Origin: Sipunculus nudus
Taxonomy: Eukaryota; Annelida; Sipuncula; Golfingiida; Sipunculidae
DNA: 64,000 bases
Direction: 5' to 3'
Assembly (NCBI GenBank): GCA_026874595.1
Contig: CM049314.1
Location: 25,431,729 to 25,495,728, forward strand
Below are positions 30,301-62,290 of the stretch, one piece after another. Numbering within the stretch: the stretch's first letter is position 1; every line of letters begins with the position of its first letter. The notes under the pieces were generated by a model. That model was not told the DNA's origin. It saw only the letters and a program-made list of their open reading frames with translations, and did not search any database. A program made the position numbers and the translations under genes.

Positions 30301-33300
30301 CTTCCGCCATGACTGTCTCTGTGGAGCTAGTTTCCCTACTTGGTGAACAAGACCTTTCTTTTCCCTCAGTTACCAAATAATTTTGTATACTGTCCATTTG
30401 CTTGCTTTTCTGTAGCCTTTTATTCCTAGTTTCCATTGACTGTGTGAAATAATTTGAAATAAACAAGTCTTTTCAATGTGCCCAGTCCGAGGCCCCAAAA
30501 CACGTCCGTTCAGCTCAACATGCCAACCGGAAGTCTTCACATCTATAGCTGCTCAAATGAGTACAAGCCCAAGCTGTGTGTGTTCAACTTGGGTAATTAG
30601 GCGTTGTCACACCTGCAGAAACGAACCGGTGATGCATTCATAATTAGTCGGGACCGGGATTAAATACACGATCCATTATCAGTTCTTCTTATTGAATAAA
30701 TATTATTTTTATATTTCCAGATTTTCAAAATTACGGATAAACGGTCATAATTTTGGTTCTCCAGTTTTAATTACGGATAAACGATTTTACGGATAAACGG
30801 TGTTCGGATGAACGGCGCTCCAGTGTATCAGTGAATATTAGGTGTTGCCTGATTGGGAATCGAACCTATGATCTCTTGACCAGGAGCCTTACATGCTACC
30901 AACTGAGCTGTGAAGATGATATACCCGTGGAAGCAGATTTAGTTCATTTATAGCTCGTAGTGAAATGCCACGATTCTAACGGAAAATGAGGAACCATTTT
31001 GTATTTGAACTAATGGATTTAACGTATGGAAGGGCCCCTCCCCCCCCCCCCCCCCCCCCCCCCCATTGGGGAGAGGGGGACCCAGGTTCCTTAGACCCCT
31101 CCTCTGATATAATAAACTCCAGGTATGAGCAAAATGAAATATTGGAACTTCTCAGGAAAAATATGATATATTTATGCAACACCTGTTTTAATAGAGCAGA
31201 CATAAAGGCAGAATTCTTAACAAGTGCCTGAATATCTCATAGATATTTATAAAATTTTTACTTAGACTGTTGGCAAACAAGTTGATTGAGCAGAGTCAGC
31301 TAAGTGACACCCGGGATGTCAACAAGCGTGATATTTCAACTGACCATGCCACATTGTTATGACAATACTTCATACCAAATTTCCACAAAAGATTAGTATC
31401 TATCTAAATTATTATGATCATTTTGTACTTAAAATGTGAATATTCCTCATTCCTTAAGACATTTTCTGTGTTTGTGTTGCCTGTTATAAATTTTATTAAA
31501 GATCGAGCTATGTCACCAATTTTCAAGATGGTGGCTGTCCAACTTGCCGCTCGATAGAAATTGTGCTTTGACAATTTTCAGAATTTGATTTAAACAAATA
31601 AATATGGAAAAATGTTCAATAAAATTTGGTTACTCAAATTGAGAATGTTTTTTAGCTTAGCTGATTATAAGTCATATGGGCTATAGTGATGGTTCTTTGT
31701 CCGTCATGCTAAAGATTTTATTCCCAAGGATATAACTTTACATAATCAATATTCAGTTGTTTACCAGATATCAGATCAGGATTTTGTACATTTTTAGCTC
31801 AGCTGACTATAAGTCATCTGAGCTATAGTCGTGGTCCATTGTCCGTCGTCCGTCCGTCTGTCCGTCCGTCCGTCCGTCCGTCCGTAGATGTGGCACGTTT
31901 TGAAACCGTAAGACCTAGGAATCCAAAATTCATCATAATGTTAGATGTCCCTAAGATCTCCTACCAAGCCGAAAACTGGGTCTTTGAGACTTTGTTCCTT
32001 TTAGAAATTAAGGAAAAGCCTCAATTTTTTATTAAAATCCTATTTTCACACTTCAGGACTGCCTAATATCAAAACCACTCATCTGTTTTTCCTCATATTT
32101 ACCATAAATATTCTTCTATATAGTTCCTATGTACATGCCAGAAATTAGGTCTGTTAAGTATAAATTCTTTAAGTTATGGGCCCAAACATAATGGACTTTG
32201 TAAAAAAATCAGGAAAAATATTTACTCACTTAACATGAAAACTTTTGAAACTAGAGTCTGTTTTCCCAAGTATATAACTATGTTTAATTAAGATTCAATT
32301 GTTTACCCAAAATTAGATCTGAATTTTGTAAATTTTTTAAGTAATTAGCATAAAAATAAAATCAGTACCTTAAGTTTTGCCCAACTTTGACCATGGCACA
32401 TTTTTTTCCTGTAAGTACCATTGATTTAATTTTCACAGCATGTAAACATAAATATTTAATTTGTTTAAATCTGAAATTTGACAATAAAAGCTTGAAAATT
32501 AAGCTAGTTATTGATTTTTTTCTTGAGGCTCTATTATAGTCATTTGCTTTGTTGACAGATTACAGATGCAGGGTCCCACTCCAGGTCACTGGAAGTCAGC
32601 TATGCCAGGGTTTCTGATTTGTTACAGTCACTGGGGGAGATCCCCTGCTGTGACAGGTGTACAGTTATTCTCATATCACCACCCCAATGACCCCCCCCCC
32701 CCCCCCCCCCCCCCGCAAACCCAACCCACCAAGTGTTATGCAGTATTGTTATTGTTTTCACTGTATCTCCTTAATTGTAATGCTGTTTCCACTCTGATAT
32801 GAAAAAGTAATTCAAGGTGTAATCCAGAAGATGCAATGTTGTGTAATGTAGCATTTTTAAAGAAATCATTTTTCTTTTAAATGATTTTACCAATCATAAT
32901 GGAACCCATCAGTATGCTTAAATTATGATAAAATATGAAGCACATTATGGATATATAAAGACACAATTAAAAATTGTGAAATCTAAATCAAGTATTTTTT
33001 TAGATATTTATTGTTTTGCAGATTTAAAAGATATATTTTTGTGGTAAAAAATAAATAAACATTTGTATGCATGATGTGGTGTTATCTGACAAGATTGAGA
33101 TTTATGATGATGCAATTGAGAATTATGAATCAACTTTTATATTCAGATGTATATGTTATATTGAAAATGTATAGAAATATAAACTTAAATTAAAAAAAAA
33201 TTGATGTGATAAAAAAATGAGGATTTATTACAAACATTTGTTCATTATTTTCCTGCATCAGCAGAATTTGAGATCAGGCTTTGTTTGCCATGTTTTATGT

Positions 33301-35134
33301 TGTTAATTAGTTATATTTCAACTGTATACATTTCATAAAAAAAAAAAACATATATTTAATAATATATATTATACAAAAAAAAGATTCAATTGAAAAAATG
33401 TGTAAACTACTGAAATGTCAACAGTTAATCGAAAAGCCAACTAATGATCATGGTAATTGTACAGATCATTTGTTCACAAACTGCTCACATGCTTCAGTTT
33501 CAACATTAGGAAACACATGGTCAGGTCACAAAATATTATTTGCAACAATTTCTTGCTCATCAATACAAACCAATCATATAAACCAACCATGGCCTTTATT
33601 ACCTCTTCCTCTTACACTTTATCTCCATTTGATATTATTTTAGATTTTTACCTTCAAGGTTAACGTCAGCTGAGCACAGTGACCCATAGGTCCCTTGTTT
33701 AAGTTCTTAGCATAATTGTAAAGTCAGTTACTTAAATTTGGGCCCAAGTTTGACCGTGGCCCATTTCGTTCCTATAAGCACTATTGATTTAATTTTTGCA
33801 GTATGCATAAACAGGATTTAATCTTTTAAAATCTAAAATTTAAAAATGAATTTAAAAATGTTGCTACTCTGAAATTGAATTTTTATTTGGAGTCTTTATT
33901 GTATACATTTGCATTGTCAGGCCCCAACGAGTCCACTTCTGGTCACTTCAGACCTGCCTAGGTAAGCTTATTAGTAATGCATTACTGGTTGAGCACCCCT
34001 GCTGTGACAGGTATACAGTAATTCTCATTCCCCCCCCCCCCCCCCAAACACACAGGAATTTTCACCAAATTTTAATTTGTTATTATTTCAGTTGTATTTT
34101 CTTAACTATACTATTGTAATTTGTTATTGTTTCAGTTGTATTTTCTTAACTATACAGCTGTTTCCACTCCTGTGTACAAAACTTAACTTGTGATAGTAAT
34201 TTCAAGGAGTAATCCAGAGGTAATGTAGCTTATTTAAAGACATTAATTTCCTTTTAAATAGTTTTAACGAATTAAAATAAAATTGGTGATATTGCAAATT
34301 GATCCTTAATGGAAATGAACATGATATTTCATATTTAATATGTATATAAGTATTATTCTTATAAATGTCTAGGAACAAATCATATATGGCTTTGTCTAAT
34401 TTATTTCAGAACTCCCCACCTATAATTACTTTAGTAACCTTAATCATATTTCATTAACCCGTTTCACCTAGATCTTCTATGACGATACACCAGGTCCTGG
34501 CAGATATAAATTACTTTATTCTGCCTAAATTCTACAATGTCTTCACTGGGATATACTGCAGACATTTCATGTACAAATATGCTAAAACATCAAAGATACT
34601 TTACTTACCTGAATTTACCTGATTAACCTGGTTCTGTTTATAGATATATTTGAAATTTATGATTGATTAAGTCATTAACCTAATCCCATTGCTCTGTATA
34701 ACCTGTATAAAATTTAATAAAGATCAAAATAAAAAACTGATCATGTTATAAATTATAACATTAATGTACAGACTACAAAATTCAAAGGTGTGAAAGCTAA
34801 AATTAATTAGAACAGTAAGGTGTGTTTTGTGACAGCCTAATACAAACAGGATAGGCAAAAAAAAAAAATATTGTCAAAATTTAGAGATCCATGCCTGGGC
34901 ACTGTCGATAAAGTGCCCAACAGCCATCTATCATTCACAAATGAGTGTGTCTTTATGGGGGTTCCTTGGGTGTTACAGTCAGTAACGGGGATGATGATAT
35001 AACCAGTAATAATAAACACAAAATGTCCTGGATAACCTATAACCATTGATGGACCATTATGTAACCAAAGATTGCCCACACAACATAAAAAATCCCTAAA
35101 TATGTACCAGTATAAATAATACAATATATATATA

Positions 35135-35213
<79 letters not shown>

Positions 35214-37576: not shown

Positions 37577-38036
37577 TTAGCTCAGCTGACTTTCAGTCAT
37601 GCTGAGCTGTAGGTATGGGTCATTGTCTGTCATCCTTCCATCTTTTCATGACAAATACACCTGTAGGGACTTTTTTTTTGCAATGCCTGCAGATATTGGC
37701 TTGATTTTGGTGTGTGGGCAGATAATGAGCAGTTACAGATCGAGTTCTCTTTTCATCCAGGTTGACCTCCTTTTAACCATTTTATGGCTCCTATACATAG
37801 AAAATTTCATTAAAAATAGAAATTTTCAAGAAAAATGCACATGTACGGACTTTTTTTTCCAGTGCCTGCAGATACTGGCCTGATTTTTGGTGTGTGGGCA
37901 GATAATGACCAGTTTCAGATTGAGTTCGCGTTTCTTCCCGGTTGACTAACTTTTGACCGTTTGACAGCACCCTATAATAGAAAATTTCATGAAAAATATA
38001 AATTTTCATGACAAGTGCACATGTACAGACTTTTTA
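37577..38036 (+). mobile_element. B-family 5' end joined to two 180-bp D-type units
   Basis: It begins TTAGCTCAGCTGACTTTCAG with the B hairpin, followed by two copies of the 180-bp unit also found in the D element (GCAGATATTGGCTTGATTTT and its match at 37868). The array is interrupted at 38037 and continues at 40338-40366 and 53061-53215. Confidence 0.65.
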
Positions 38037-40337
38037 TTAGCTCAGCTGACTTTCAGTCATGCTGGGCTATAGCTATGGGTCTTTGTCCATCGTCCTTCCG
38101 TCTGTCCGGCCGTCCAGCCGTCCGGCCATTAGCAGGGCACAAATTGTGACCGTAGGGGCTAGGGCCATGAACCCTATGCAGTCTTAGAGGTTCTAAAAAG
38201 ATCTCCTTGCAAACCTGAAATTAGGTCACTGCGACCTATATTCTCGAAGTTATGGGGTGTGTTTGCACCCCCCAGAAATAGTTCTTTTAGCCAAAATTTT
38301 CATCCCTACCTTCAATCTTTCACATACAGCTCACCTACCAACAGGAGAAGAACCATAATTATTTTGAGGTCACAAGGTCAAAGGTCAAGGTCACAGAACC
38401 AACTTCTTTGAAAAGCCTGTGGATGCATTTTAAGCCAAACCTTTCATCCCAATTCTTTGATCTTTCACATATAGCTCACCTACTAAGTGGGAGAAGAATC
38501 CTATAGATGTTGAGGTCACAAGGTCAAAAGTCAGGGTCACAGGCTCCACTTCTTTGAAAAGGTTGTGGACACATTTCAAGCAAGACCTTTCATTCCAAAC
38601 CTTTCAGCACTGATATCGCTTCTCTGCCAACAGGTGAAAAGACCTGTTGATTTTGAGGTCAAAGGTCAAGTTCACAGCACCCTCTTCTTGCGTGGAGTCA
38701 TTTTCAGGCAAACTTTTAAATCTATACTTTCCATCTGTCATATATGGCTTACCTACCAATAGGGGAAGAAGCCTATTGATGTTGAGTTCAAAAGGTCAAA
38801 GGTCAAGGCCACAATACTTAATTGTTCTAAATGCTTGTGAACATATTTCAAGTCAAACTGTTCAACCCAAACCTTCAGTCCTTCACATATGCCACATCTA
38901 TGCATCACTCAGTGTGATTCAAACTTCATATTTATGGGTCTTTTTGCATGAAGAAATAACTAATTGATTTTGAGGTCAGCTGGTCAGGAGGATAAAGGTT
39001 GCAGGTCTTAAGTTATTCACTCATTGGTTGCCAAGTAATTACACCCGGCCAGATGTAAGTGGTTAGTAGTTACCCATCATTTAGAAAGAATCCAGTTGAT
39101 ATGTGGGCAAAAGGCCAAGGTCATAGGTCAGGGAAGTTCACAATAACTTATTTTGTAGACCATCTCTATTTTTCTTGTACATATAACCATTGGTTATGGT
39201 ACATCTCACTGTGTGGCTGTAATTGTGAGTGATGCTGGTGACATATGACTCTCTTTTGTATCAGCCTGTTAAGTGATAAGGCTGAGTGATAAATACCTCT
39301 TTACTGCATAACAAAAACACTGTTGCCGGCATGCTTCAGCCAGGCATTAAGACTGTGAGAGTATAGTATTAAGGTTTAGCTACTGATTTATAAGATGATG
39401 GGAACATTTTGCTGTTTATTTTATGGAATCATAGCAATAAACTTAGTTTCCTAGATATCTGAATATTTTTATATAAATCACCAGATATAAAAGCAAATGT
39501 TTGTTCTCATAATATGTGGATGTGTACCTGGATTTAGGATGGCTTTTTTTTATAACAAGACCTTTAGTCATGCTTTCTGCATTTCTTTTCTTTCAGGTTT
39601 TGCAGTTTACCTACCCTACACTTTTAACATTTTCATATCTATAAATCTAACATGAGGGCCTGAATATGCCTTTTGAATGGCTTTGGACATTCATTGCTGT
39701 AACATCCTCTGGAGAATTTGCTACAAGTATGGTCTCTTATTGGAGGATGTGTGATATCAAAAAACAGACTTGTCAGAAATCCATTATGTCTGCCAGTTAG
39801 CCACCTTAGAAATCCTTTTGTCAGTGCAGTTTCAGTGATTTTAAGCTCAGCTGACTTTTAGTCATGCTGTGCTATAGCGATGGGTCTTTGTCCGTCGTCC
39901 TTCCGTCTGTCCGTCCGGCCAGCTGTCCGGCCATTAGCAGGGCATTGTAACTGTAAGGGCTAGATACATGAACCCTACGCAGTCTTAGAGGTTCTAAAAA
40001 GATCTCCTTGCAGATCTGAAATTAGGTCACTGTGACCTATATTCTCTGAGTTAATGGGTGTGTTTGCACCTCCCAGAATTAATTCTTATAGCCAAAATAA
40101 TCATCCCAAACCTTACCTGTCAATAGAGGAACAAACCTTTTGATATTTAGGTCTTAGGGTCAAAGGTCAATGTCACAGGACCAGCTTCTTGACAAAAGTT
40201 GTGGATGCATTTCAAGTCAGACTTTTCATCCCAAACCTTCCATCTTCCAAGTATGGTCAGATACCATATGGTATACCATCAGGCTTTAAATACAGGTCAT
40301 GCTTGTCAGTTGAGCGTCATGACCCATGGGTCACTTG
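38037..40337 (+). mobile_element. B-family Helitron-like element(s)
   Basis: The start at 38037 has the B hairpin (arms AGCTCAG/CTGGGCT and TGACT/AGTCA), then GGGTCTTTGTCC and TCCG/TCCGGCC repeats. Inside are repeats rich in AGGTCAAAGGTCA. A second B-type 5' end lies at 39841, and the shared 3' end is TGACCCATGGGTCACTTG, a 14-bp palindrome just before CTTG. One element with a duplicated 5' end or two abutting elements are both possible. Confidence 0.65.
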
Positions 40338-40915: not shown

Positions 40916-43900
40916 TTAGCCCAGCTGAATATATGTCATCTGAGCTATAGTCCTGGTCCTTTGACCGTCGTCCGTCCGGCCGTCCGTTAACAGGGCACGT
41001 TTTAAAACCCTTGGACCTACGAATTCGAAATTCTGCATACCATAAGATGTCCCCAAAATCTCCTACCATACCAAAAATTGGGTCATTAGAACTTCGTTCC
41101 TTCCAGATATTAAGGAAAAACCTCCGTTTTCCATAAAAAAGCAATTTTTACACTTCAAGTCTGCCTAATATCAAAACCACTGATCTGTTTTTGATCATAT
41201 TTAGTATTCATATTCTTCTATACATTTTCTGTGCACATACCAAATATTAGGTCAGTATTGGGTATTATTTTGAAGTTATAGGCCCAAATATAATGCAGTT
41301 TTTTAAAAATCAGGAAATATATTTGCTCACTTAACATGAGAATTGCTGAAGCTGAAGACTTTTTTTTCAGGAATATAACTTTATTTAATCAAGATTCAAT
41401 TTTTTGCCCAAAATTAGATCTGAATTTTGCAAATTTTTCAAGTTATTAGCATAAATAAAAAATTAATACCTTAAATTTTGTCCAACTTTGGGAGTGGCAC
41501 ATTTTTTCCCTGTAAGCACTGTTGATTTAATTTTCACAGCATATATACATAAGGATTTAATCTTTTAAAATCTGAAATTTCAAAGAAATTGTTTGAAAAG
41601 AGTAGCTTTTATTCAAGTTTTCATACACCATGTCAAGTGTTGTTTATATCTGGCCCACCTAGTAGTACAGCCTTCACTTGCATTATGTTACCCACCCCAG
41701 GCAGCTTGCCTTGACCCAGCTTGGCCACTACTAGCAGGCTTCTCCTCTGCCCTGCACTCAACCCCCCCCCCCCCCCCAGCTGGTGCATAAACTAGATGAA
41801 TGTTATAATTTTCTGTATTTTATTGTATCGCCAGACATAGTCTGGAGATACTATGGTTTTGGCACGGTCGCGCCGCCGCCGCCGCAGAGATTTCTTTTGG
41901 ACACAATTACTCAAAAAATATTTCACGGATCTTTACCAAACTTGGTATATGTATAGATATGGGTGAGAGGACGACGCCTATTTAAAATGAGGTCATGATC
42001 TCAACTAGGAGAGTGACCTTGACCTTGAAAAGGTTCAATTTTGGGGAAAATCACACAAATTCTTAAATATCTCAAGAAAACTTTAATGGATTGATCCCAA
42101 AATCAAGTTGATCGAAGATCATTGATAGGGTTGTCATGTTCCAGAAACTGGTGGCGCCACCTATTATTCTTTACTTGTTTTCATGCCGTTTAATATCCCC
42201 AAAATTGCTACTTGACAGTACTGTGAGCATTATAAGTCAAAAACTAATGGACAGGTTTCTTTCATATTATGCAAATACATAGATATGGGTTATGGGATGA
42301 TGTTTATTTAAATTGGGGTCATGACCTTTCCTATGAGAGTGGCCTTGACCTTGAATATTGCCATATATGGTGAAAATCACACAAAATCATTAATTTCTCA
42401 ATAAGGGATGCATGCATTGGTCTAAAAATCAACTTGACCGAAGATCTTGGATAGTAATGTCATGTACCGGAAACAGGTGGCACCACCTGTTATTCTTTTA
42501 CTTGTTTTTGTGCCGTTTAATACCCTATCATTGCCACTTAACAGTACATTTATAACCTGTGAGCATTATAAGTCAAAAACTAATGGACAGATTTCTTTCA
42601 TATTATGCATATACATAGACATGGGATGATGTATATATAAATTGGGGTCATGACCTTTCCTATTAGAGTGGCCTTGACCTTGAAAAATTGCCATATATGG
42701 TGAAAATTACACAAGTCATTAATATCTCAATAAGGGATGCATGCATTGGTCCAAAAATCAACATGTTCGAAGATCTTGGAAAGTATTGTCATGTACCGGA
42801 AACAGGTGGCGCCACCTGTTATTCTTTTACTTGTTTTGTGCCGTTTAATACCCCAACATTGCCATTTATCAGTACTGTGAGCATTATAAGTCAAAAACTA
42901 ATGGACAAATTTCTTTCATATTATGCATATACATGTGGATATGGGTTATAGGATAATGTTTATTTGAATAGGGGTCATGACCTTTCCAATGAGTGGCCTT
43001 GACCTTGAATATTGCCATATATGGTGAAAATCACACAAAATCATTAATTTCTCAATAAGGGATGCATTGATTGGTCCAAAAATCAACTTGAACGAAGATC
43101 TTGGATAGTGTTGTCATGTACGGGAAACAGATGGTGCCACCTGTTATTCTTTTACTTGTTTTCGTGCCGTTTAATACCCCAACATTGCCACTTAACAGTA
43201 TTGTGAGCATTATAAGTCAAAAACTAATGGACAGATTTCTTGCATATACATAGACATGGGTTAGGGGATGATGTATATTGAAATTTGGATCATGACCTTT
43301 TCTATGAGAATGACCTTTTCTATGAGTGTGGTCTGATATTAATTGTTGCTGAAGATGGGGGGCCTATTCTTAAAGGGGGGGGGATTAATTGTCTGGGGAT
43401 ACTATGGCACCTGCGGTGCCAAGAAATATCTAGTTTTATTCTTGGACATGCTACATTTTAGATTTTGTATTGTACCACCAGGGTTACAATGATTAAAGTG
43501 CACATTTAATTGTGTCCACAAAGTGATGTATTGCTATGAAAGTATGGATGTTCATCAGATAAGTAATGCTTTACTTCAGAAGAGTAAAACTTCACCAGGT
43601 GTGAAATTGACTATTAATTCCAGTTATTAATTATAGCTGAGATTGTAATTAGCATAATGATATTTTTTGTCCCTCATTCAACCAACAGTGTGTATACTTT
43701 ATTTGAAAAGATGTTTTTATTTTATCAAATTTACTGAATCTTTTATTTTATTTCGGTGAATAAAATTAAGCTTGTCCTGAAAACTCCAATGTGCAAAACC
43801 TTTTAATAGGAATTCAAGGAATAATTTTGTAGATGCCATGTTGTGGCATTATTTTCTTTACATTCAGTTTAAACATATGATTTAATATGACCCAATGTGA

Positions 43901-46211: not shown

Positions 46212-49200
46212 TTAGCTCAGCTGACTATAAGTCATCTGAGCTATAGTCGTGGTCCATTGTCCGTCGTCCGTCCGTCTGTCCGTCTGTCCGTCCGTCCGTC
46301 CGTCCGTCCGTCCGTCCGTCCGTAGATGTGGCACGTTTTGAAACCGTAAGACCTAGGAATCCAAAATTCAGCATAATGTTAGATGTCCCCAAGATCTCCT
46401 ACCAAGCCGAAAACTGGGTCTTTGCGACTTCGTTCCTTTGAGAAATTAAGGAAAAACCTCAATTTTTTATTAAAATCCTATTTTCACACTTCAGGACTGC
46501 CTAATATCAAAACCACTCATCTGTTTTTCCTCATATTTACCATAAATAATCCTCTATATGGTTCCTATGTACATGCCAGAAATTGGGTCTGTATTATATA
46601 ATTTAAAAAAGTTATGGGCCCAAACATAATGCATTTTGTAAATAATCAGGAAAAAAATTTGATCACTTAACACAAAACTTGTTAAAGCTAAGCACTTTTT
46701 TTCCAGTAATATAACTTTTATTAATCAAAATTAAATTGTATACCCAACATTTGATCAAAATCTTTTAAATTTTTTTAAATATTAGCAAAAATAAAAAATT
46801 GGTACCTTAAACTTTGCCCAACTTTGACCATGGCACGTTTTTTTCCTGTAACTGCTGTGGATTTAATTTTCAAAGCATGTTTTTGTTAGCATTTCAACTG
46901 TTAACATTTAAAATTTGAAACCAGTTGATCAAAAACTGTAGATTTTATTCAAGTTTTCAAGCACCATGTCACATATTGTTTACATCAACCTAGTGTTATG
47001 CAGTTTGCTAGAGCTCAGCTCCCCAGCTTCAGCTCTAAGTTCCTTAAATTAGGCATACTGTAAGATGTCTCCAAAATCCCCTACCATGCCAAGAATTTGG
47101 TCACCAGAACTTAATTCCTTTGAGATATTAATGAAAAACTTCATTTTTTCATTAAGACCCTTTGTTACACTTCAGGACTGCCTAGTATCAAAACCACTGA
47201 TTTGACTTTGATCATATATAATATACATATTTTTCTATACATTCGCTATGCACATGCCAGAAATGATGTCAGTATTGCGTAATTGTTTTAAGTTATGTGC
47301 CCAAACAAAATTGACTTTGTAAAAAATCAGGAAAAATATTTACTCAGGTTTCATGAAAATTATTGAAGCTAGAAAATTTTTTTTAAGTATATAACTTTGT
47401 TTAATTAAGATTCAATTGTATACCCAAAATTAGATCTGTATTTTGTAAATTTTATAAGTTATTAGCATAAACATAAAATCAGTACCTGAAATTTTACCCA
47501 ACTTTGACCATGGCACATTTTTTCCCTGTGAGTATTGTTGATTTAATTTTCTCAGAATGTAAACATAAGTATTTAATGTGTTTAAATCTGAAATTTGAAA
47601 CTAAAAGGTTGAAAATTAGGCTAGTTATTGAATTTTATCTTGAGGGTCTATTGTAGTCACTTGCTTTGTTCCAGATGCAGGTAGGCCACTCCAGGTCACT
47701 GGAAGTCAGCTATGCCAGGGTTCCTGATTTGTTTCAGTCACTGGGGGAGATCCCCTGCTGTGACAGGTGTACAATTGTTCTCATATCACACCCCCTCCCC
47801 CCCCCCCCCCCCCCCATGAATATATAAATATACATTTGTATGCATGATGTGGTGTTACATGACAAGATTGAGATTTATGATGATGCAATTTAGAATTATG
47901 AATCAACGTTTATATTCAGAAATATATGTTATATTGGAAATGTATACAAATTAAACTTAAAATAAAAAAATTAGGATCTAATACAAACATGTGTTCATTA
48001 TTTTCAAGCCTCAGCAGAATTGGAGATCAGGCTTTGTTTGCCCTGAATGTTTATGCAAAAGTGTTGTTAATCCCATCTCTTCCCCCCCCCCCCCCCCCCC
48101 AACCCCCGGCTGTCATTGATCCCTAGCACCTCACCGTCACCTGTGCACTGGGACATTAGTTAATATTGCAAATGTGTACAATTTTTTCAATTTGAAAGAT
48201 AATTGGATTAGAAAAAATTAAGATCTAATATTGAAACATATTCTTGCCCCAGGAGAATGGAACATAAAGTGATCAGCTCTTGTCTGTCCATCATCTCTCA
48301 ATTATCATTAAATATATATACTAATTATGAAATTTTTCCTTTAAGCACTGTTGAAATAACTTTCATATGCTGTATGTGTATGGATTTAAGCCATTAAAGT
48401 CTGAAATTTGAAAGCAACTTATGTATTCAGATGTGTAATATTGCAGATGAAAAACTTTAAAATATTAAAATATATTATCAGCGTTGTTTGTCTAACAGTC
48501 TGTCTGTCCTTTTTTAAATATTTTGTAATTGTGAATGGACTATTTAATCCTGTAAGTATTGTTGAATTAATTGGAAATCCTATATGTATATACACTATGT
48601 TAATACAGAGATGTTGTAACTCCCATCATTCCAGCCCTCCACCCCCCCCCCCCAACCACCACCACCAGGTTCTTGCATCTGGGGACTGGAGACATCAGTT
48701 ATATTTCAACTGTATACATTTTATAAAATAAAAATACATATATTTAATAATATATATTATTTGAAATAGATCCAATTGAGCAAATGTGTAAACTACTGAA
48801 CTGTCAACAAACTATCAAAAAGCCAGCCAGTGATCATGGTAATAATATACATCTTATGTTCACAAACTGCTCACATGCTTCAATTTTGACATTAGAGAAT
48901 GCATGGTTTGGTCACAAAATATTATTTGCAACAATTTCTCACTCATCAATACAAACCAATCATGTCAACCAGCCATGGCATATATTACCTTTTCATCTTA
49001 GACTTGATCTCCATTATTATTTTAGATTTTTACCTTCAAGGCCAACTTCAGCTGAGCACAGTGACCCATATTTATAGCACCATGTCTTGAATGTTTACAT
49101 CAAGTCATTGGTTAACAGTGTTCCAGGCTGTTACATAACACCTTCACTCCTTGCTTACTGCTTCTGTGAGTGTCTGGGTCAGGCTGGGTCAGGCAGTAAT

Positions 49201-50986
49201 TACCAGAGAGCCTTTCTCCTCTCTCTTTCCCTTTCTCTCTTTCTAGCTCTCTTTCTCTCTCTCTCTTTCTCTCTCTCTCACCCCTATGCCTCCCTTCCTC
49301 CCTCCACCCCATTATGTTGACAGGTACTATAAACCTAATTTATTAGATATATATGTTGATGCAATTAAGAAATGTGAATCAACTGAAATATTCACATATA
49401 TATGTTATACTCTAAATGGATAGTTACATTTTCTAACCTGGAAAAAAATGATGATATAAAAAAGGGAATTTATGTAAAAATTGTTCATAATTTCCTGGCT
49501 CAGAAGAATGGGAATTAAAATTATTTGCTTTGTTTCTCTAGCTTTCTTGCCTGTTTTAAATATTTAATAACTATGAATAAACTTTTTTTTCCTGTAAGCT
49601 CTGATTAATTAAATTTCATATCCTGTACGTATATGCAAGGGTATTGTAACTCCCACCATCCCCTTCCCCCACCCCACTAAGTCCTTGCTCCTTGGCACTG
49701 TCAACAATAGTGTTATTGCTATAGCATAAAATTTAATAATTTGAAGAAAATATATACAGAGATTCTGTGAGTGTCTGGGTCAGGCTGGGTCAGGCAGTAA
49801 TTACCAGAGAGCCTTTCTCCTCTCTCTTTCCCTTTCTCTCTTTCTAGCTCTCTTTCTCTCTCTCTCTTTCTCTCTCTCTCACCCCTAAGTCCATGCTCCT
49901 TCGCACTGTCAACAATAGTGCTATTGCTATAGCATAAAATTTAATAATTTGAAGAAAATATATACAGAGAGACAGAGGCGTTTTAACTCCCATCGTAACC
50001 CCCCCCCATCAAGTCCTTCCGCCTGTGGAGTGGGGATTTTATAGCAACTGTATACATATCATAAAATAGAAAAAACAGTTTAATTAAAGTTTAAATTTAA
50101 AAAATTGGATCTCATTAGACAAATGCGTAAAATGTTGAACTGTCAACAGCCTGTCAAAAAGGTATCCTATGAAAGCGCAAGGTCAGATCTTAAAATATTA
50201 TTTGCAACAATTTCTTCAATCATATCAACCAACCGTGGCCTTGATTACCTCTTTCTCTCAGACTTTATCTACATTTCATAATATTTTAGATTTTAACCTT
50301 CCAGGTGTTTAAGTACTGTTGAATGCTCCCTCCCTCTCTCTCTATCTCCTTTTCTCTCTAAATCCAACCCTCCTTGCTGCCCACACTGTTTCCTTCTCCG
50401 AACCCCATCCCAATGTCAGCCTCAGTAAACGAGAACAAGTTGAATCAGATATATTCATATTTTTATATATTGTATAACTGTTTGTTGCCTATATACGTGC
50501 CAGAAATTATGTCAATATTGTGTAATATGTAGATGTGGTGGGCATCAATATAATGTACCTAAGAGATATCATGTCATACAGTCACAATTCATAAATCCAC
50601 TCTTCAGCATAGTTAATAATAACATTATATATGTCAAATTGAAATCTTGCAGACTTCTATACACTATAGATCCTTCAACAAATAGCCTTATCATCATTCT
50701 ACCACTGCTTAGTGTACTGTCATTGCATTCATATTTGCTCAAATATATTGCTATTTTCAACAGCTCCCAAATAAATAAAAAATAAACCACTATATTTACT
50801 CCATATTAATCCATCAGTCAGGTAATTTCATACATGATTTACTAGCATATTACATTATATTCCTTTATAATAGCCTAATAGGTCCATGATATTCATAAGG
50901 TTTGTCGACTAAATATAGTATCACAATGGTGATACATTTATAGTTCAATCATGATCAGCTGAGCGTCGTGACCCATAGGTCCCTTG
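46212..50986 (+). mobile_element. A-family element nested in outer A
   Basis: It has the 5' hairpin, then a TCCG array at 46258-46322. Two ~680-bp internal units start near 46378 and 47059. C-tracts lie at 47797-47815, 48082-48100 and 48642-48653, and a partial A 3' end at about 49050. The final 3' end is GACCCATAGGTCCCTTG. After it the host element resumes with AGTTCAATTTTAATGATAAA, as in the uninterrupted copy at 61440. Confidence 0.65.
49162..49990. repeat. Duplicated CT-rich block with ~600-bp offset
   Basis: A ~125-bp block (GAGTGTCTGGGTCAGGCTGG through a TC-rich microsatellite) occurs at 49165 and again at about 49767. A ~85-bp block starting AAGTCC-TGCTCCTT occurs at 49678 and 49886. 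Together they indicate a local duplication within the A element. Confidence 0.75.
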
Positions 50987-53060: not shown

Positions 53061-53215
53061 TTTTTTATGTGTGGGGAGATAATGAAAAGTTACAGATGGA
53101 GTTTGCATTTCGTTCAGGTTGACCTATTTTTGACAGTTTGACAGCTCCTGAACATAAAAAAACTTAATGAAAAAAAAAAAAAATTTTCATAACAAATGTA
53201 CATGTACAGCCCTTT
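53061..53215. repeat. D-type 180-bp unit, fragment
   Basis: Diverged copy of the D unit (GATAATGAAAAGTTACAGAT, ATTTTCATAACAAATGTACA), continuing the array broken at 40366. Confidence 0.65.
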
Positions 53216-54306
53216 TTAGCCTTCAGCCCATAGGCTGATGGGCTCTTGATGTCACCCAAGCTGTCCGTCCGTCCGTCTGGTGTCCGTCCTTCTGGCGTCC
53301 GTTAACTTTAACCTTGTGATCAGGATATCTCTAAAAGGATTCCCCATTGGAATTTTATTTCATCAGTGAAGATGTATATGTATAAAATCTCGGTAAAGTT
53401 CAAAGATGGGTGATCTTGACCAATTTTTAGCTCAGCTGACTATAAGTCATCTGAGCTATAGTCGTGGTCCATTGTCCATCGTCCGTCCGTCCGTCCGTAG
53501 ATGTGGCACGTTTTGAAACCATAAGACCTAGGAATCCAAAATTCAGCATACTGTTAGATGTCCCCAAGATCTCCTACCAAGCCGAAAACTGGGTCTTTGC
53601 AACTTCATTCCTTTGAGAAATTAAGGAAAAACCTCAATTTTTTATTAAAAACCTATTTTCACACTTCAGGACTGCCTAATATCAAAACCACTCATCTGTT
53701 TTTCCTCATATTTCCTATAAATATTCCTCTATATAATACCTTTGTACATGCCAGAAATTAGGTCTGTATTATATAATTTAAAAAAGTTATAGGCCCAAAC
53801 ATAATGCATTTTTTAAATAATCAGGAAAGTAATTTTATCACTTAACACAAAACTTGTTAAAGCTAAGCACTTTTTTTCCAGTAATATTACTTTTATTAAT
53901 CAAAATTAAATTGTATACCCAAAATTAGATCAAAATCTTTTAAATTTTTTAAAATATTAGCAAAAATAAAAATTTGGTACCTTAAATTTTGCCCAACTTT
54001 GACCATGGCACGTTTTTTGCTGTAACTGCTGTGGATTTAATTTTCACAGCATGTTTTTGTTAGCATTTCAACTGTTAACACCAAAAATTTGAAACCAGTT
54101 GATCAAAAACTGTAGATTTTATTCAAGTTTTCAAGCACCATGTCACATATTGCTAGTGTTATGCAGTTTGCTAGAGCTCAGCTCCCGAGCTTCAGCTCTA
54201 AGTTCCTTAAATTTGGCATACAGTTAGATTTCTCCAAAATCCCCTACCATGCCGAGAATTTGGTCACTAGGACTTAATTCCTTCGAGATATCAATGAAAA
54301 ACTTCA

Positions 54307-56569
54307 TTATGCCCCCGCCACAAAGTGGCCGGGGCATATAGTTTTACCCATGTCCGTCATTCCGTCATTCTGTCATTCCGTCATTCCGTCATTCCGAAAT
54401 CAAACAGTTGTACGGACTTTTTTTCACAGTGCCTGCAGATATTGGCCTGATTTGTGTGTGGGCAGATAATGACCAGTTACAGATCGAGTTCGCGTTTCGT
54501 CCCGGTTGACCTACTTTTGACCGTTTTACGGCTCCAAAACTTAGAAAATATCATGAAAAATAGAAATTTTCATGACAAATACACATGTACGGACTTTTTT
54601 TCACAGTGCCTGCAGATATTGGCCTGATTTTTGGTGTGTGGGCAGATAATGACCAGTTACAGATCGAGTTCGCGTTTCTTCCCCGTTGACCTACTTTTGA
54701 CCGTTTTACGGCTCCTAAACAGAGAAAAATTCATGAAAAATAGAAATTTTCATGACAAATACACATGTACGGACTTTTTTTCGCAATGCCTGTAGATAGT
54801 GGCCTGATTTTTGGTGTGTGGGCAGATAATGACCAGTTACAGATCGAGTTCGCGTTTCGTCCCGGTTGACCTACTTTTGACCGTTTTAAGGCTCCTAAAC
54901 TTAGAAAATTTAATGAAAAATAGAAATTTTCATGACAAATACACATGTACGGACTTTTTTTCGCAATGCCTGCAGATCTTGGCCTGATTTTTGGTGTGTC
55001 GGCAGATAATGACCAGTTACAGATTGAGTTCGCGTTTCGTCCCGGTTGACCTACTTTTGACCGTTTTACGGCTCCTAAATAGAGAAAAATTCATGAAAAA
55101 TAGAAATTTTCATGACAAATACACATGTACGGACTTTTTTTCGCAATGCCTGTAGATATTGGCCTGATTTTTTGTGTGTGGGCAGATAATGACCAGTTAC
55201 AGATCAAGTTCGTGTTTCATCCCCGTTGACCTACTTTTGACTGTTTTACGGCTCCTAAACTTAGAAAAATTCATGACAAATAGAAATTTTCATGAAAATT
55301 ATACACATGTACAGACTTTTTTTCGCAGTGCCTGCAGATATTGGCCTGATTTTTGAAGTGTGGGCAGATATAGACCAGTTACAGATCGAGTTCGCGTTTC
55401 GTCCCGGTTGACCTACTTTTGACCGTTTTACGGCTCCTAAACTTAGAAAATTTCAAGAAAAATAGAAATTTTCATGACAAATACAAATGTACAGCTGTTT
55501 TTAGCCCTCAGCTCATAGGCTGATGGGCTATTGTCGTCACCCAAGCTGTCCGTCTGTCCGTCCGTCCATCTGTCTGTCCGGTGTCTGTCCGTCCGTCCGT
55601 TCTGCGCCTGTTAACTTTTACCTTGTGAGCGGGATATCTCTAAAAGGATTCATCGTTGGAATTTTATTTCATCAGTCAAGATGTATATCGATAAAATCTC
55701 GGTCAAGTTCGAAGATGGGTGACCTTGACCCATTTTTCTACATTTTAGAGCTGATTATAGAAAAACACTCAGAAGTTTATATCTCAGGAACCATTGTGTG
55801 GATTTTCACAAAACTTACTATGATCATTGGGACTGATGGTCTGTATGTGCGGCACAATTTCGGTGGCACCACCTGCAATTTCTGATTTTTTAATGAAATT
55901 TTATTGGATTTTTTCAATTTTGGCCTTTTGTGCAGGATATCTCCAAAGGTATTCAACACAGGAACTTCATTTCTTCAGTGCTATTGCATTATATTTACAA
56001 AATCTTGGTCAAGTTCAAAGATGGGTGATCTTGACCTACTTTTCAAGGTTACAGAGCTTAGTATAGAAAAAAACTTAGGAGCTTATTTCTCAGGAAGCAT
56101 TTGGTGGATTGTTATGAAACATGGTATATACCTCTCCAGTTGAAATTTATAAATGATAATCAACTTTTGCTAATATTCTAGTTTTGCAATGCAATGCTTA
56201 CAGATACTGGCCTAATGTTTGGTCTGTGGGCCCATAATGACCACTAACAGATCGAGTTCGCGTTTCGTCCCAGTTAACCTATTTTTCACCATATGACAGA
56301 TCCTGAACATAGAAAATTTCATGAAAGACAGAAATTTTCATGATAAATGCACATATATGGACTTTTTTTCACAATGCCTGCATATAATGGCCTGATTTTT
56401 GGTGTGTTGCTTGATAATTACCCTTTACAGATCGAGTTTGCATTTTGCCCTTGTTGACCTACTTTTGACCATACAACACCTCCTGAACTTTAAAAAAATT
56501 TTACAAAATTTAACAAATGTTTCTAATTTGCCCCAGGCGGGGGCATTCGTGTCGTTCCGACACATCTAG
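54307..56569 (+). mobile_element. D-family Helitron-like element with 180-bp tandem units
   Basis: It begins TTATGCCCCCGCCACAAAGT; arms ATGCCCC and GGGGCAT form a GC-rich hairpin. TCCGTCATTC repeats follow, then six ~180-bp units (starts near 54411, 54589, 54769, 54949, 55129 and 55310), then C' and two decayed units. The 3' end is hairpin GTGTCGTTCCGACAC, two bases, CTAG. The flanks join as ACTTCA|TTTTTCCATTA, exactly the uninterrupted sequence at about 60570. Confidence 0.85.
55501..56181 (+). mobile_element. C-family element (C') nested in D
   Basis: It begins TTAGCCCTCAGCTCATAGGC and ends TAATATTCTAG. It holds about two ~320-bp units, the first with GGTGGCACCACC. It lies between the sixth 180-bp unit of D and its continuation at TTTTGCAATGC. 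It is the intact reference for the split C element. Confidence 0.75.
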
Positions 56570-59500
56570 TTTTTCCATTAAAAACCCATTGTTACACTTT
56601 AAGACTGCCTAATATCAAAACCACTGATCTGACTTTGATCATATATAATATACATATTTTTCTATACATTCGCTATGCACATGCCAGAAATGATGTCAGT
56701 ATTGTGTATTTTTTTTTAGTTATGGGCCCAAACATAATGCACTTTTTTAAAAATCAAGAAATATATTTACTCACCTAAGATGAGAATTGCTGAAGCTGGA
56801 GACTTTTTGTCAGGAATATAACTTTATTTAATCAAGATTCGATTGTTTACCCAAAATTAGATCTGAATTTTGCAAATTTTTCAAGTTATTAGCTTAAATA
56901 AAAAATCAATACCCTAAATTTTGTCCAACTTTGGCAATGGCATGTTTTTTTCTGTAAGCACTGTTGATTTAATTTCACAGCATATATACATAAGGATTTA
57001 ATCTTTTAAAATCTGAAATTTCAAAGGAATTGATTGAAAAGAGTAGCTTTTATTCAAGTTTTCATACACCATGTCAAGTGTTGTTTACATCTAGCCCACC
57101 TAGTAGTAAAGCCTTCACTTGCATTATGTAACCCACCCCAGGCAGCTTGTCTTGGCTCAGCTGGGCCACTACTAGCAGGCTTCCCCTCTGCCCTGCACAC
57201 CCCCCCCCCTAGATGATGCATTAACTAGATGAATGTTATAATTTTCTATATTTCATTTCATCTTGGCTATGCTACATTTTAGATTTTGTATTTACCACCA
57301 GGGTTACAATGATTAAAGTGCACATTTAATTGTGTCCACAAAGTGGTGTATTGCTATGAAAGTGTGGATGTTCATCAGATAAGTAATTCCTTCCTTGAGA
57401 AGAGTAAAAACTTCACCAGGTGTGAAATTGACTATTAATTCCAGGAATAAATTAAAGCTTAGATTGTAATTAGCATAATGATATTGTTTGTCCCTCATTC
57501 AACCAACAGTGTGTATACTTTATTTGAAAAGATGTTTTTATTTTACCAAATTTACAGAGTCATATTTTATTTTGGTAAATAAGATTAAGCATGTACTGAA
57601 AACTCCAATGTGCAAAACTTTTAATAGTGATTCAAGGAATAATCTTGCAGATGCCATGTTGTGGCATTATTTTCTTTTAAATTCAGTTTAAAAATTTGTG
57701 ATTTAAAAATAATAAAAATGTATGTGTATGCATAATATGACCCAATACGAGCTACACTCTTGATGTATAATGATTGCAACTAAGAATTCTAATATTTTAA
57801 CTTATATTTTCAATGTTTTTTTTAATACAAATGTATAAAACTTGTAAATAAAAAAAATTAATCAGATAAAAACTATTTTAATGGAAAAAGTGGATATGCT
57901 TAAATAATATATAAACTTAAATGTATTATTCCCTTGAATGTGAAATAAAGGTATTAGTCCAGACCTAGGAATCCAAAATTCGGCATAATGTTAGATGTCC
58001 CCAAGATCTCCTACCAAGCCGAAAACTGGGTCTTTGCAACTTCGTTCCTTTGAGAAATTAAGGAAAAACCTCAATTTTTTATTTGAAACCTATTTTCACA
58101 CTTCAGGACTGCCTAATATCAAAACCACTTATCTGTTTTTCCTCATATTTACCATAAATATTCCTCTATATAGTTCCTATGTACATGCCAGAAATTATGT
58201 CTGTATTATTTAATTTAAAAAAAGTTATGGGCCCAAACATAATGCATTTTGTAAAAAATCAGGAAAGATATCTGATCACTTAACACAAAAAACGTTAAAG
58301 CTATGGACCTTTTTTCCAGTAATACAACTTTAATTAATCAAAATTAAATTGTATACCCAAAATTAGATGAAAATCTTTTAAATTTTTAAAAATATTAATA
58401 AAAATAAAAAATTGGTACCTTAAATTTTGCCCAACTTTGACCATTGCACGTTTTTTTCCTGTAAGTACTGTGGATTTAATTTTCACAGCATGTTTTTGTT
58501 AGCATTTCATCTGTTAACACCAAAAATTTGAAACCAGTTGATCAAAAACTGTAGATTTTAATCAAGTTTTCAAGCACCATGTAACTTGTTAGTTTATAAT
58601 AACAGGAAATTAACTGGCAGTTACTGATATAAGAATCTTGTATCGATGGGTAGAATGTCACATATTCCAAATAACACCATGCAGTCACCTATGGCATTTT
58701 TCAGTTCAATTCTAATGATAAAGAAGTAAATCATATTATTCATTACTAATCATTAGGGATTATATGAAGGAAATTAATGATAGACAAAGATGCAGTTGAT
58801 AATAATAATCTAGATTCCTACTGTGTCTAGTGTGTACATTGATGTGAAATTAGTCCAAAATGAATTTTTTACAGTTATTATTTAATATAAATAAAAGCCA
58901 TAAAACCAGGTACTTATGATCATTATTTAAATGTGTGAATTTTGTATATTCTGGATTCTCAACATCAACTTTGTAATTGTATTTAATTACGAATATGATT
59001 ATGTACTCCATTATAAAATTTCTTGCATAAAGAATGGGAATTCAGGAAAAAATGAAAGTATATGAATACTCGTGCAAATACTTTCAAAATGTATTCATGA
59101 ATGCATTCATGAATATATTCTTTAATATTATTTTAATAATCATATCAGTTATATTTCATTATAAAAAATCATATGATTCTCTTATTATTTTTAATAAAAA
59201 TTATATTTGGGACAGTATTTGTAATTTTTTTAATAAATAGTTAAACTCTTATATTATATGTTCTGCTTATAAGTTATATGGCCAAGTCAAAATCTGTGTG
59301 ACAGTAGTACTCCATTTGTTAATAAAATAAATGAAATCAATCCTCTTCCGTCTCCAAAGGTACTATCAAAATCATACATAAGCTAAACAACAACAACTCA
59401 TAATACAGCTTATATTTATTACCACACAAAACCAGCATGTGCCTCATTTCTAAATAATATTTTTTTATCATATATAACAGCTGAGCGTCGTGACACATAG

Positions 59501-59661
59501 GTCCCTTGTTCTACATTTTAGAGCTGTTTATAGAAAAACACTCAGAAGCTTATATCTCAGGAACCATTGTGTGGATTTTCACAAAACTTACTATGATCAC
59601 TTGGACTGATAGTCTTTACCTGCTGCACAAGTTTTGTGATGCCACCTACAATTTTGGATTT

Positions 59662-62290
59662 TTAGCTCAGCTGACTATAAGTCATCTGAGCTATAGTCGT
59701 GGTCCATTGTCCGTCGTCCGTCCGTCTGTCCGTCCGTCCGTCCGTCTGTCCGTCCGTCCGTCCGTCCGTAGATGTGGCACGTTTTGAAACCGTAAGACCT
59801 AGGAATCCAAAATTCGGCATAATGTTAGATGTCCCCAAGATCTCCTACCAAGCCCAAAACTGGGTCTTTGTGACTTCGTTCCTTTGAGAAATTAAGGAAA
59901 AACCTCAATTTTTTATTAAAAACCTATTTTCACACTTTAGGACTGCCTAATATCAAAACCACTCATCTGTTTTTCCTCATATTTACCATAAATATTCCTC
60001 TATATAGTTCCTATGTACATGCCAGAAATTATGTCTGTATTATTTAATTTAAAAAAGTTATGGGCCCAAACATAATGCATTTTGAAAAAAATAAGGAAAG
60101 ATATTTGATCACTTAACACAAAAAATGTTAAAGCTGTGGACCTTTTTTCTAGTAATATAACTTTAATTAATCAAAATTAAATTGTATACCCAAAATTAGA
60201 TGAAAATCTTTTAAATTTTTTAAAATATTAATAAAAATAAAAAATTGGTACCTTAAATTTTGCCCAACTTTGACCATGGCACGTTTTTTTCCTGTAAGTA
60301 CTGTGGATTTAATTTTCACAGCATGTTTTTGTCAGCATTTCAACTGTTAACACCAAAAATTGGAAACCAGTTGATCAAAAACTGTAGATTTTAACACCTT
60401 GTAACGTATTGTTTACATCAAGCTAGTGTTATGCAGTTTGCAAAAGCTCAGCTCCCCAGCTTCAGCTCTAAGTTCCTTAAATTCAGCATACAGTTAGATG
60501 TCTCCAAAATCCCCTACCATGCCAAGAATTTGGTCACTAGGACTTAATACCTTCGAGATATTAATGAAAAACTTCATTTTTCCATTAAAAACCCATTGTT
60601 ACACTTCAAGACTGCCTAATATCAAAACCACTGATCTGACTTTAATCATAAACAATATACATATTTTTCATTCTCTATGCACATCCCAGAATGATGTCAG
60701 TATTGCGTAATTATTTTAAGTTATGGGCCCAAACATAATGCACTTTGTAAAAAATCAAGAAATATATTTACTCCCTTAACAAGGGCATTGCTAGAGATTT
60801 TTTTGTCAGTGATGTAACATTATTTAATCAAGATTCAATTGAATACCCAAAATTAGTTCTGAATTTTTCAAATTTTATAAGTTATTAGTATAAATATAAA
60901 ATTAGTACCTTAAATTTTGCCCAACTGTGACCATGGCACGTTTGTGTACTGTGAGCACTGTTGATATAATTTTCATATCATGCACACATTAGGATTTCAG
61001 CTTTTTAGTTTAGAAAGCTGAAAGAAATTGGCCAAAAATTGTAGCTTTTATTAATGTTTTTTATGAGACCCTGTCAGACTTGGGCTCTCTCCAGCCCCTC
61101 TTGAGTCACCTGTATGTTGACCTTGTTGACCTTTCATCAAATTATGCACGCTTGAGGCGAGGCATACAGGAATCCAGGCAGCTTATGGCCAATCACAGTT
61201 GATCCAGGTGTCCAACCCAACTCATCTAGTAGTTTTAACCAACAACATAACAATAAACAACAAATTAATAAATTTTTATTGGTTTTTAATAACAAATTAA
61301 AGAAAAATAGAAAAGGAATTTGTTAGTTTATAATAACAGGAAATTAACTTGCAGTTACTGATGATATAAGAATCTTGTATCGATGGTTAGAATGTCACAT
61401 ATTCCAAATAACACCATGCAGTCACATATGGCATTTTTCAGTTCAATTTTAATGATAAAGAAGTAAATCATATTATTCATTACTAATGATTAGGGATCAT
61501 ATGAAGGAAATTAATGATAGACAAAGATGCAGTTGATAATATTAATCTAGATTCCTACTGTGTCTAGTGTGTACATTGATGTGAAATTAGTCCAAAATGA
61601 ATTTTTTACAGTTATTTTTTAATATAAATAAAAGCCATAAAACCAGGTACTTATGATCATTATTTAAATGTGTGAATTTTGTATATTCTGGATTCTCAAC
61701 ATCATTGTTTGGTGAAAATTGAATAAATACCAGACATGGTGCGAATACTTTGTAATTGTATTTAAATAAGAATATGATTATGTACTCCATTATAAAATTT
61801 CTTGCATAAAGAATGGGAATTCAGGTAAAAATGAAAGTAAATGAATACTGGTGCAAATACTTTCAAAATGTATTCATGATTGCATTCATGAATATATTCT
61901 TTAATATTATTTTAATAATCGTATCAGTTATATTTCATTTTAAAAAATCATATGATTCTCTTATTATTTTTAATAAAAATTATATTTGGGACAATATTTG
62001 TAATTTTTTTTAATAAATAGTTAAACTCTTATATTATATGTTCTGCTTATAAGTTATATGGCCAAGTCAAAATCTGTGTGACAATAGTACTCCAATTGTT
62101 AATAAAATAAATGAAATCAATCCTCTTCCCTGTCTCTAAAGGTACTATCAAAATCATACATAAGCTAAACAACAACAACTAATAATACAGCTTATATTTA
62201 TTACCACACAAAACCAGCATGTACCTTATTTCTAAATAATATTTTTTTATCATATATAACAGCTGAGCGTCGTGACCCATAGGTCCCTTG
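59662..62290 (+). mobile_element. A-family element (A2), second insertion in the same C
   Basis: A 2.63-kb copy without visible nested insertions, the best candidate for the intact A structure. It has the hairpin at the 5' end, a TCCG array at 59710-59768, two internal units (about 59825 and 60497), and the conserved ~850-bp 3' part from about 61440 ending GACCCATAGGTCCCTTG. The joined flanks give GGATTTTTTATGAA, with six Ts as in the C copy. Confidence 0.8.

What the first reader, a model, noticed from the sequence alone, without database searches (positions are those of the whole stretch)
31794..62290. A common terminal code, 5'-TT hairpin ... CT(A/T)G-3', with no target-site duplication
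A/B, C, D and E differ in sequence but share a TT start directly before a hairpin and a CTAG or CTTG end followed by T. In A/B, D and E a palindrome precedes that end (GACCCATGGGTC in A, TGACCCATGGGTCA in B, GTGTCG/CGACAC in D, GGCACC/GGTGCC in E). Four A insertions (31794, 40916, 53427, 59662) each restore the exact T number of an uninterrupted paralogue if the element is TT...CTTG. D and E restore theirs at A|T. Canonical Helitrons start TC, end CTRR after a hairpin and insert at A|T without duplication, so these are similar with a variant 5' end and T|T targets.
Basis: partly seen in the sequence, partly recalled or inferred. Interest (0 to 1): 0.8.

Follow-up and report, generated by a model that had tools for sequence, protein, structure and literature searches.

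The report
Nested Helentron (HINE) jumping genes
The repeats are non-coding relatives of Helentrons, a known group of rolling-circle jumping genes; the same genome also holds long protein-coding Helentrons with matching ends, and the elements favour a specific four-base target.

Summary
Each has an uninterrupted paralogue without target duplication, taking TT as the element's start. Genome-wide, TT precedes 9,761 of 10,103 exact A hairpins.

Of 14 stretches downstream of Rep genes in this genome, 9 carry window-type 3' ends in the sense direction, none in antisense. For the B type and for 54307-56569 a coding copy has both ends; for A only the 3' end was found, but A keeps a relic of the Helentron endonuclease. 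Six of six Rep loci checked show the Helentron-type RGSPH motif.

New detail: in all three families the base at -3 is T in 97-99 of 100 listed copies (background 30-38%), so the target reads TNW|T. A TT...CTAG element with an endonuclease-like end is a small new variant. Partner of 41823-43433: not found.

The parts
31794..33697 (+). A1: HINE, TT...CTTG, inserted in the T-run of an older A copy
   Evidence: self-BLAST; net length 0 against best paralogue, 37 of 41 paralogues 0 (96); subTIR GCTCAGCTGAC/GTCAGCTGAGC, 0 of 1000 shuffles
33386..33559 (+). Relic of the C-terminus of a Helentron endonuclease inside A1
   Evidence: tblastn with the C13 Rep-helicase protein E=1.8e-6 (45); 66% over 50 aa to the C7 protein's end
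40916..44973 (+). A2: HINE with D41 nested inside
   Evidence: 18, 20, 96; 5' hairpin and subTIR not above shuffles in this copy (50 of 300; 154 of 1000)
41823..43433 (+).
   Evidence: 18, 29; empty site in L019 identical at the junction by eye; -1 in the automatic count
46212..50986 (+).
   Evidence: 18; L014 empty site 97.9% identical, net length 0
48757..48927 (+). Second relic of the endonuclease C-terminus, in A-type sequence
   Evidence: tblastn E=3.9e-5 (45)
53427..59508 (+). A4: HINE with E54 (and C) nested inside
   Evidence: 18, 20; net length 0 in 5 of 5 paralogues
54307..56569 (+).
   Evidence: 18, 29; L031 empty site 99.6% identical, net 0; coding copy with both ends at C3 (58)
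55501..56181 (+). C: 5' hairpin element ending CTAG|T, without subTIR or 3' palindrome; 3' structure unresolved
   Evidence: 18, 23, 29
53216..53426 (+). Older C-type copy (5' part) that hosts A4
   Evidence: 5' hairpin match
59662..62290 (+). A5: HINE, no nested insertion seen in the self-comparison
   Evidence: 18, 20; net length 0 against best paralogue, 2 of 4 paralogues 0 (96)
37577..37660 (+). B-type 5' end
   Evidence: 23
38037..38120 (+). B-type 5' end in a 180-bp tandem unit
   Evidence: 18, 23
39841..40337 (+). B-type element, end CTTG|TTTT (one search used start 39842)
   Evidence: subTIR 11 nt with 1 mismatch, 3 of 1000 shuffles
62724..62800 (+). B-type 5' end; no matching 3' end seen in the window after it
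   Evidence: 23

Best explanation
The repeats are non-autonomous Helentrons (HINEs) of several families, nested in each other. Inferred mechanism: a Rep (HUH) plus PIF1-helicase protein of an autonomous Helentron nicks at TNW|TT, peels off one strand while the 5' hairpin and subterminal repeats mark the ends, stops after the 3' subTIR and palindrome at CTWG, and joins the single strand into a TNW|T target without duplicating it. Shown: ends, insertion without duplication, target letters, coding elements with matching ends. Inferred from known Helitron/Helentron biology: the rolling-circle chemistry and which protein moves which element.
For: Empty sites: 15 of 22 insertions, 11 with net length 0. 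subTIRs upstream of the 3' end: at most 10 of 1000 shuffles for A1, A3, A4, A5, B, D41 and E54. Rep genes: 143 Helitron_like_N matches in the genome. Window-type 3' ends in 9 of 14 stretches downstream of Rep domains (11 ends in sense, 0 in antisense; 0 on both strands of seven upstream stretches, 131,002 base-strands), at repeated distances from the coding region: 1,021-1,022 nt in three B-type loci, 364 nt in both E54-type loci. A-type 3' end identical over 34 of 34 nt at C7. Both ends around the C17 gene (A/B-type 5' hairpin, B-type 3' end) and around the C3 gene (E54 type, about 12.0 kb). C11 ORF: DUF6570, OTU, Helitron_like_N, PIF1, Exo_endo_phos; A, B and E54 partners: Helitron_like_N and PIF1. 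RGSPH motif in 6 of 6 loci. Endonuclease relic inside A. Literature: PMC4067079 (passages; sections 6, 7, 11), PMC7492417 (passages; sections 7, 9), PMC3627910 and PMC5148889 (passages).
Against: The A/B-type 3' palindrome is not above chance by folding energy. No A-type 5' end was found in about 14.8 kb upstream of the A partner's main ORF (74), and its two copies look like one duplicated locus (98.9% identical over 3.7 kb including the 3' flank). Five of the 14 downstream stretches have no window-type end. D41 has no partner identified; C lacks a proper 3' end. The endonuclease match is below Pfam's curated score in the B and E54 partners, and no endonuclease hit was listed in the A-partner pieces searched. 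Some coding copies are broken by stops. Net length +1 at L009 (6 of 7 paralogues +1). No transposition was observed.
Confidence: 0.95

Rival explanations
1. Canonical Helitrons (Helitron1) with a drifted 5' end.
For: CTAG fits CTRR, D41 copies sit at A|T, no duplication.
Against: 5' hairpins and subTIRs, RGSPH motif in 6 of 6 Rep loci checked, endonuclease and OTU domains in C11 (42), CTTG ends.
Confidence: 0.03
2. Small DDE-type elements (MITEs) with a TT or T target duplication.
For: Termini are hairpin-rich, and a TT duplication would be hidden in T-runs; Pearl elements were called MITEs before being re-categorised (PMC7492417, passage).
Against: Ends are asymmetric; no 2-bp duplication at L032; single T on the right in 7 of 100 A and 8 of 100 E54 copies; Rep-helicase genes carry the same ends.
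Confidence: 0.01
3. E54 and D41 are proto-Helentrons (TT...CTAG, A|T, without endonuclease), as in Phytophthora.
For: Same terminal letters as proto-Helentron-Pi (PMC4067079, section 11); D41 prefers A|T.
Against: The E54 partner continues into an endonuclease-like region (Exo_endo_phos E=3.2e-4, below the curated score, 64; translation in 62; about 34% aa to C11 over its C-terminal half, 52, 58), and E54 copies mostly sit at T|T.
Confidence: 0.08

Closest known systems
HINE / DINE-1 (non-autonomous Helentrons; PMC4067079)
   Same: 5' hairpin-forming subTIR, 3' subTIR followed by a palindrome, T-rich TT target, no duplication, coding Rep-helicase-endonuclease element in the same genome
   Different: Target resolved here to TNW|T rather than TT; ends CTTG or CTAG
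Cg_HINE of Crassostrea gigas (PMC7492417)
   Same: GTCC-type microsatellite after the 5' hairpin, 11-12 bp subTIR, central tandem repeats, TT target; related to bivalve Pearl elements
   Different: There no autonomous element could be related to Cg_HINEs; here coding copies with matching ends were found for the B and E54 types (both ends) and A (3' end only)
proto-Helentron-Pi of Phytophthora infestans (PMC4067079, section 11)
   Same: 5' TT, 3' CTAG, no duplication
   Different: It lacks the endonuclease and inserts at A|T; the E54 partner has an endonuclease-like end and E54 copies mostly sit at T|T
Helitron2 with asymmetric inverted repeats, e.g. Chlamydomonas (PMC3627910)
   Same: 5' hairpin at the very end; 3' repeat just upstream of the 3' hairpin; reported insertion between TTTT and T/C
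   Different: Sequences not compared here
FoHeli1/2 of Fusarium oxysporum (PMC5148889)
   Same: Published target begins TNAT (followed by T in a figure legend, by A in the text), which equals TNA|T if the element starts with TT; same ambiguity of the shared T
   Different: That paper reports no endonuclease in fungal elements

Membership tests
Helentron/HINE | Subterminal inverted repeats, the 5' one in a hairpin at the end | tested here: met
   for A1, A3, A4, A5, B, D41, E54; not met for C; not above shuffles for A2
Helentron/HINE | 3' palindrome between the 3' subTIR and the end | tested here: inconclusive
   D41 and E54 strong; the A/B-type GACCCATRGGTC is visible but not above shuffles by energy
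Helentron/HINE | No target duplication, T-rich target | tested here: met
   empty sites; a hidden T remains formally possible; flanks
Helentron/HINE | Autonomous partner with Rep and PIF1 helicase with the same ends | tested here: met
   both ends for B and E54 types, 3' end only for A; D41 and C without partner
Helentron/HINE | C-terminal endonuclease in the partner | tested here: met
   C11 ORF E=3e-13 (42); B 2.4e-4 and E54 3.2e-4, both below Pfam's curated score; for A only the relic, 66% over 50 aa to the C7 ORF end
Helentron/HINE | Diagnostic Rep motif 2 with S before P (RGSPH) | tested here: met
   6 of 6 loci; motif definition from PMC4067079 section 7 (90)
Canonical Helitron (Helitron1) | 5' TC, CTRR end, A|T target, no 5' hairpin | tested here: not met
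   5' TT plus hairpin, CTTG ends, T at -1 in 83 of 100 A and 92 of 100 E54 copies
proto-Helentron | Partner lacks the endonuclease | tested here: not met
   E54 partner; for D41 no partner was found, so untested there
Helentron/HINE | Moves by a rolling-circle single-strand intermediate | not testable with these tools
   No experiment; inferred

The most novel reading that the evidence does not exclude
The Helentron target is not a TT or AT dinucleotide but a tetranucleotide TNW|T, whose anchor is the T at -3. The -1 base is a family-specific setting (A for D41; T for A and E54), so T|T and A|T targeting are two settings of one Rep nick-site motif, possibly read out as in HUH transposases of the IS200/IS605 type (that comparison is recalled, not tested). 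In this reading the presence of an endonuclease does not set the terminal code.
Probability: 0.5. Interest if true: 0.55.

Novelty: new member of a known kind. Interest (0 to 1): 0.4.

Why it matters
It puts a very abundant repeat (14,950 matches of a 59-base A terminus at up to 3 mismatches) into a named transposon class and pairs it with coding elements in the same genome, a link reported as unresolved for oyster HINEs (PMC7492417, passage). The TNW|T target gives a precise, testable prediction of where the Rep protein cuts, and bears on whether Helitron (A|T) and Helentron (T|T) targeting are really different. Self-nesting into T-runs also explains how such a region grows.

Tried and rejected
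Rejected: canonical Helitron, MITE with TT duplication, proto-Helentron for E54 (see rivals). The idea that A and E54 differ in target was dropped. The 2-bp TT duplication model fits the window insertions one by one and is excluded only at L032 and disfavoured by the single-T right flanks. Led nowhere: exact patterns of the A/B hairpin in genome contigs and viral contigs (0 hits); a blind structural search for ends in four Rep loci (three hits in two loci, taken as chance); an A-type 5' end upstream of the C7 gene; a D41-like 3' end in the held loci (none); the D41 right-flank search. Of the 14 downstream stretches, L048, L051, L052, L057 and L059 showed no window-type 3' end; L059 showed no Rep-helicase alignment either. 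The end in L053 lies 1,881 nt beyond the aligned coding part and is followed by A-type sequence, so it may belong to another nested element; L054 and L055 hold two ends each. The listed flank rows are the first places of each search (A and E54: contig C1 only; D41: C1-C3), not a random sample; repeated flanks were kept (92, 99 and 66 distinct of 100 for A, D41 and E54, E54 on 7 letters only; T-N-W in 89, 96 and 63 of these).
Full report
What was checked. With element = TT...CTTG or TT...CTAG, joined flanks match an uninterrupted paralogue. Of 22 insertions tried (7 in the window, 15 genomic A copies), 15 had one among held DNA; net length against the best paralogue was 0 in 11, -1 in 2 (D41, L017), +1 in 1 (L009) and +9 in 1 (L024, a 9-nt repetition inside the right flank). 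Closer paralogues from the genome give empty sites identical at the junction for E54 (99.6% identical overall), A3 (97.9%) and D41 (by eye, 10 nt left and 28 nt right).

Anatomy. The first 40 nt of A1, A3, A4, A5, C, D41 and E54 fold below all 300 shuffles; B 1 of 300, A2 50 of 300. The last 40 nt do so only for D41 and E54; the A/B palindrome and C do not. Inverted repeats between the first 20 and last 60 nt, the 3' one lying upstream of the end, against 1000 shuffles: A1, D41 and E54 0, A3 1, B 3, A5 9, A4 10, A2 154, C 535. This asymmetric arrangement is that of Helitron2/Helentron elements (PMC3627910 and PMC4067079, passages). The GTCC microsatellite after the A hairpin and the 180-bp tandem array in E54 are visible in the sequence; both kinds of feature are described for oyster HINEs (PMC7492417, passages and section 7). 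The sequence after the 5' hairpin reads CTATAG (A), CTATAG or CTGTAG (B), CTATTG (C), CTATGG (D41), ATATAG (E54); seen by eye, not tested.

Genome. The window's assembly is held unnamed: 1.43 Gb in 153 contigs. A 59-base A 5' end matches 14,950 times at up to 3 mismatches, reversed-pattern control 0. Exact 3' A ends: 5,746. Exact E54 5' hairpins 1,650 and 3' ends 1,233; D41 5' hairpins 481; each of these patterns also fixes one distant flank base as not T, so the counts are partial. TT stands directly before 9,761 of 10,103 exact A hairpins.

Target. In the 100 listed copies per family the letters before the element's TT are: A, T at -3 99, T at -1 83, A at -1 15; D41, T at -3 99, A at -1 90; E54, T at -3 97, T at -1 92, A at -1 7. 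T-N-W fits 97 of 100 in each. In the window and six held stretches T stands at -3 of 30% of A|T sites, 37% of T|T sites and 38% of TT|TT sites. On the right, T follows CTTG in 100 of 100 A copies (7 with a single T) and CTAG in 99 of 100 E54 copies (8 with a single T). The -3 T belongs to the target, since it stands in the empty sites shown. Caveats: the rows are the first listed places (contig C1; D41 C1-C3) and some flanks repeat. The E54 pattern did not force the TT: it is TT in 94 of 100; the D41 start is TTG in 99 of 100. FoHeli elements of Fusarium are reported with a target beginning TNAT (PMC5148889, passages), the only paper in the library that holds TNAT and Helitron together. None of the four papers from which I read passages states a T at -3 for animal Helentrons, and no listing of searches pointed to one; their supplementary figures, which show flanks, were not seen, so it may be in print.

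T ambiguity. Inside T-runs the extra two T can be an element TT, a T at each end, or a TT duplication. PMC4067079 section 6 and PMC5148889 state the same problem. L032 (joined ...GGGTTTT|TGATTTG, empty ...GGGTTTC|TGATTTG) has one T on the right and excludes a 2-bp TT duplication there. A 1-bp T duplication is formally inseparable from a T-initial element.

Partners. A family search gave 143 Helitron_like_N matches (150 of 195 candidates scored), several with open frames of 1,626 to 2,426 aa. The C11 ORF carries DUF6570, OTU, Helitron_like_N, PIF1 and Exo_endo_phos. Of 14 stretches downstream of Rep domains, 9 hold a window-type 3' end: L047 (A; 34 of 34 nt equal to 44943-44976), L053 (A-like), L049, L054, L055 and L058 (B), L060 (B-like but ending CTAG, as does a second end in L055), L050 and L056 (E54). 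L048, L051, L052, L057 and L059 hold none. Control: the same patterns give 11 ends in sense and 0 in antisense on these 14 stretches, and 0 on both strands of seven upstream stretches (131,002 base-strands). The distance from the end of the aligned coding part is 1,021-1,022 nt in L049, L054 and L058, and 364 nt in both L050 and L056; L047 238, L055 529 and 1,118, L060 750, L053 1,881. So the ends belong to the coding elements in most of these loci, and CTTG and CTAG occur on otherwise alike termini. Both ends were found around the C17 gene (A/B-type 5' hairpin, B-type 3' end; about C17:35625479-35639640; a second A/B-type 5' end lies 0.7 kb further upstream) and, E54 type, around the C3 gene (about C3:41766495-41778499). 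For A only the 3' end was found, at two C7 loci that look like one duplicated locus. A sequence keeps a relic of the endonuclease end (33386-33559, E=1.8e-6; 48757-48927, E=3.9e-5), 66% identical over 50 aa to the C7 protein's end. All six Rep loci checked have RGSPH, the Helentron form of motif 2; C11 and C13a, and C17 and C13b, are pairs of near relatives. The endonuclease match in the B and E54 partners is below Pfam's curated score, and none was listed for the A-partner pieces searched; for E54 the translation and alignment to C11 (about 34% aa) support it.

Reading. The elements are HINEs and their partners are Helentrons. Mechanism by established Helitron biology (inferred here): Rep nick at the TNW|TT end, strand displacement by the helicase, termination after the 3' subTIR and palindrome at CTWG, joining into TNW|T. 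Shown here are ends, empty sites, target letters and coding elements. E54 pairs TT...CTAG ends with an endonuclease-like end, whereas the described TT...CTAG proto-Helentron lacks the endonuclease (PMC4067079 section 11), so terminal letters and endonuclease are not tied. That the organism is a mollusc is a guess from resemblance to oyster HINEs and Pearl elements; it was not tested.

Noticed in passing
24671-30472, minus strand: Non-LTR retrotransposon frames with endonuclease, reverse transcriptase and zf-RVT matches.
   Followed up: partly
22626-24121, minus strand: Transposase-like frames, one with a DDE_1 match (23044-23886); pogo/Tigger-like by recall; not linked to the elements of the finding.
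   Followed up: partly
11126-12860, minus strand: Retroelement-like frames; one has an integrase (rve) match below Pfam's curated score.
   Followed up: no
21044-21409, plus strand: RING finger (C3HC4) frame, a likely host gene exon.
   Followed up: no
264-601 and 1889-2337: A 37-bp satellite, seemingly split by about 1.4 kb that contains a 335-aa frame without Pfam match.
   Followed up: no
5432-6533: 21-bp tandem repeat open in more than one frame.
   Followed up: no
51839-53060: About 1.1 kb of other sequence lies between two A-type 3' ends (51838 and 53060), the second a roughly 90-bp fragment; possible read-through to a second end, or a truncated insertion.
   Followed up: partly
42011-43200: Four copies of a repeat spaced about 326 bp inside D41, like the central repeats of HINEs.
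   Followed up: no
L055 and L060: A/B-type 3' termini ending CTAG instead of CTTG downstream of Rep genes.
   Followed up: partly
5' ends of A, B, C, D41, E54: Each 5' hairpin is followed by TATAG, TATGG, TATTG or TGTAG; a shared foot that was not tested.
   Followed up: no
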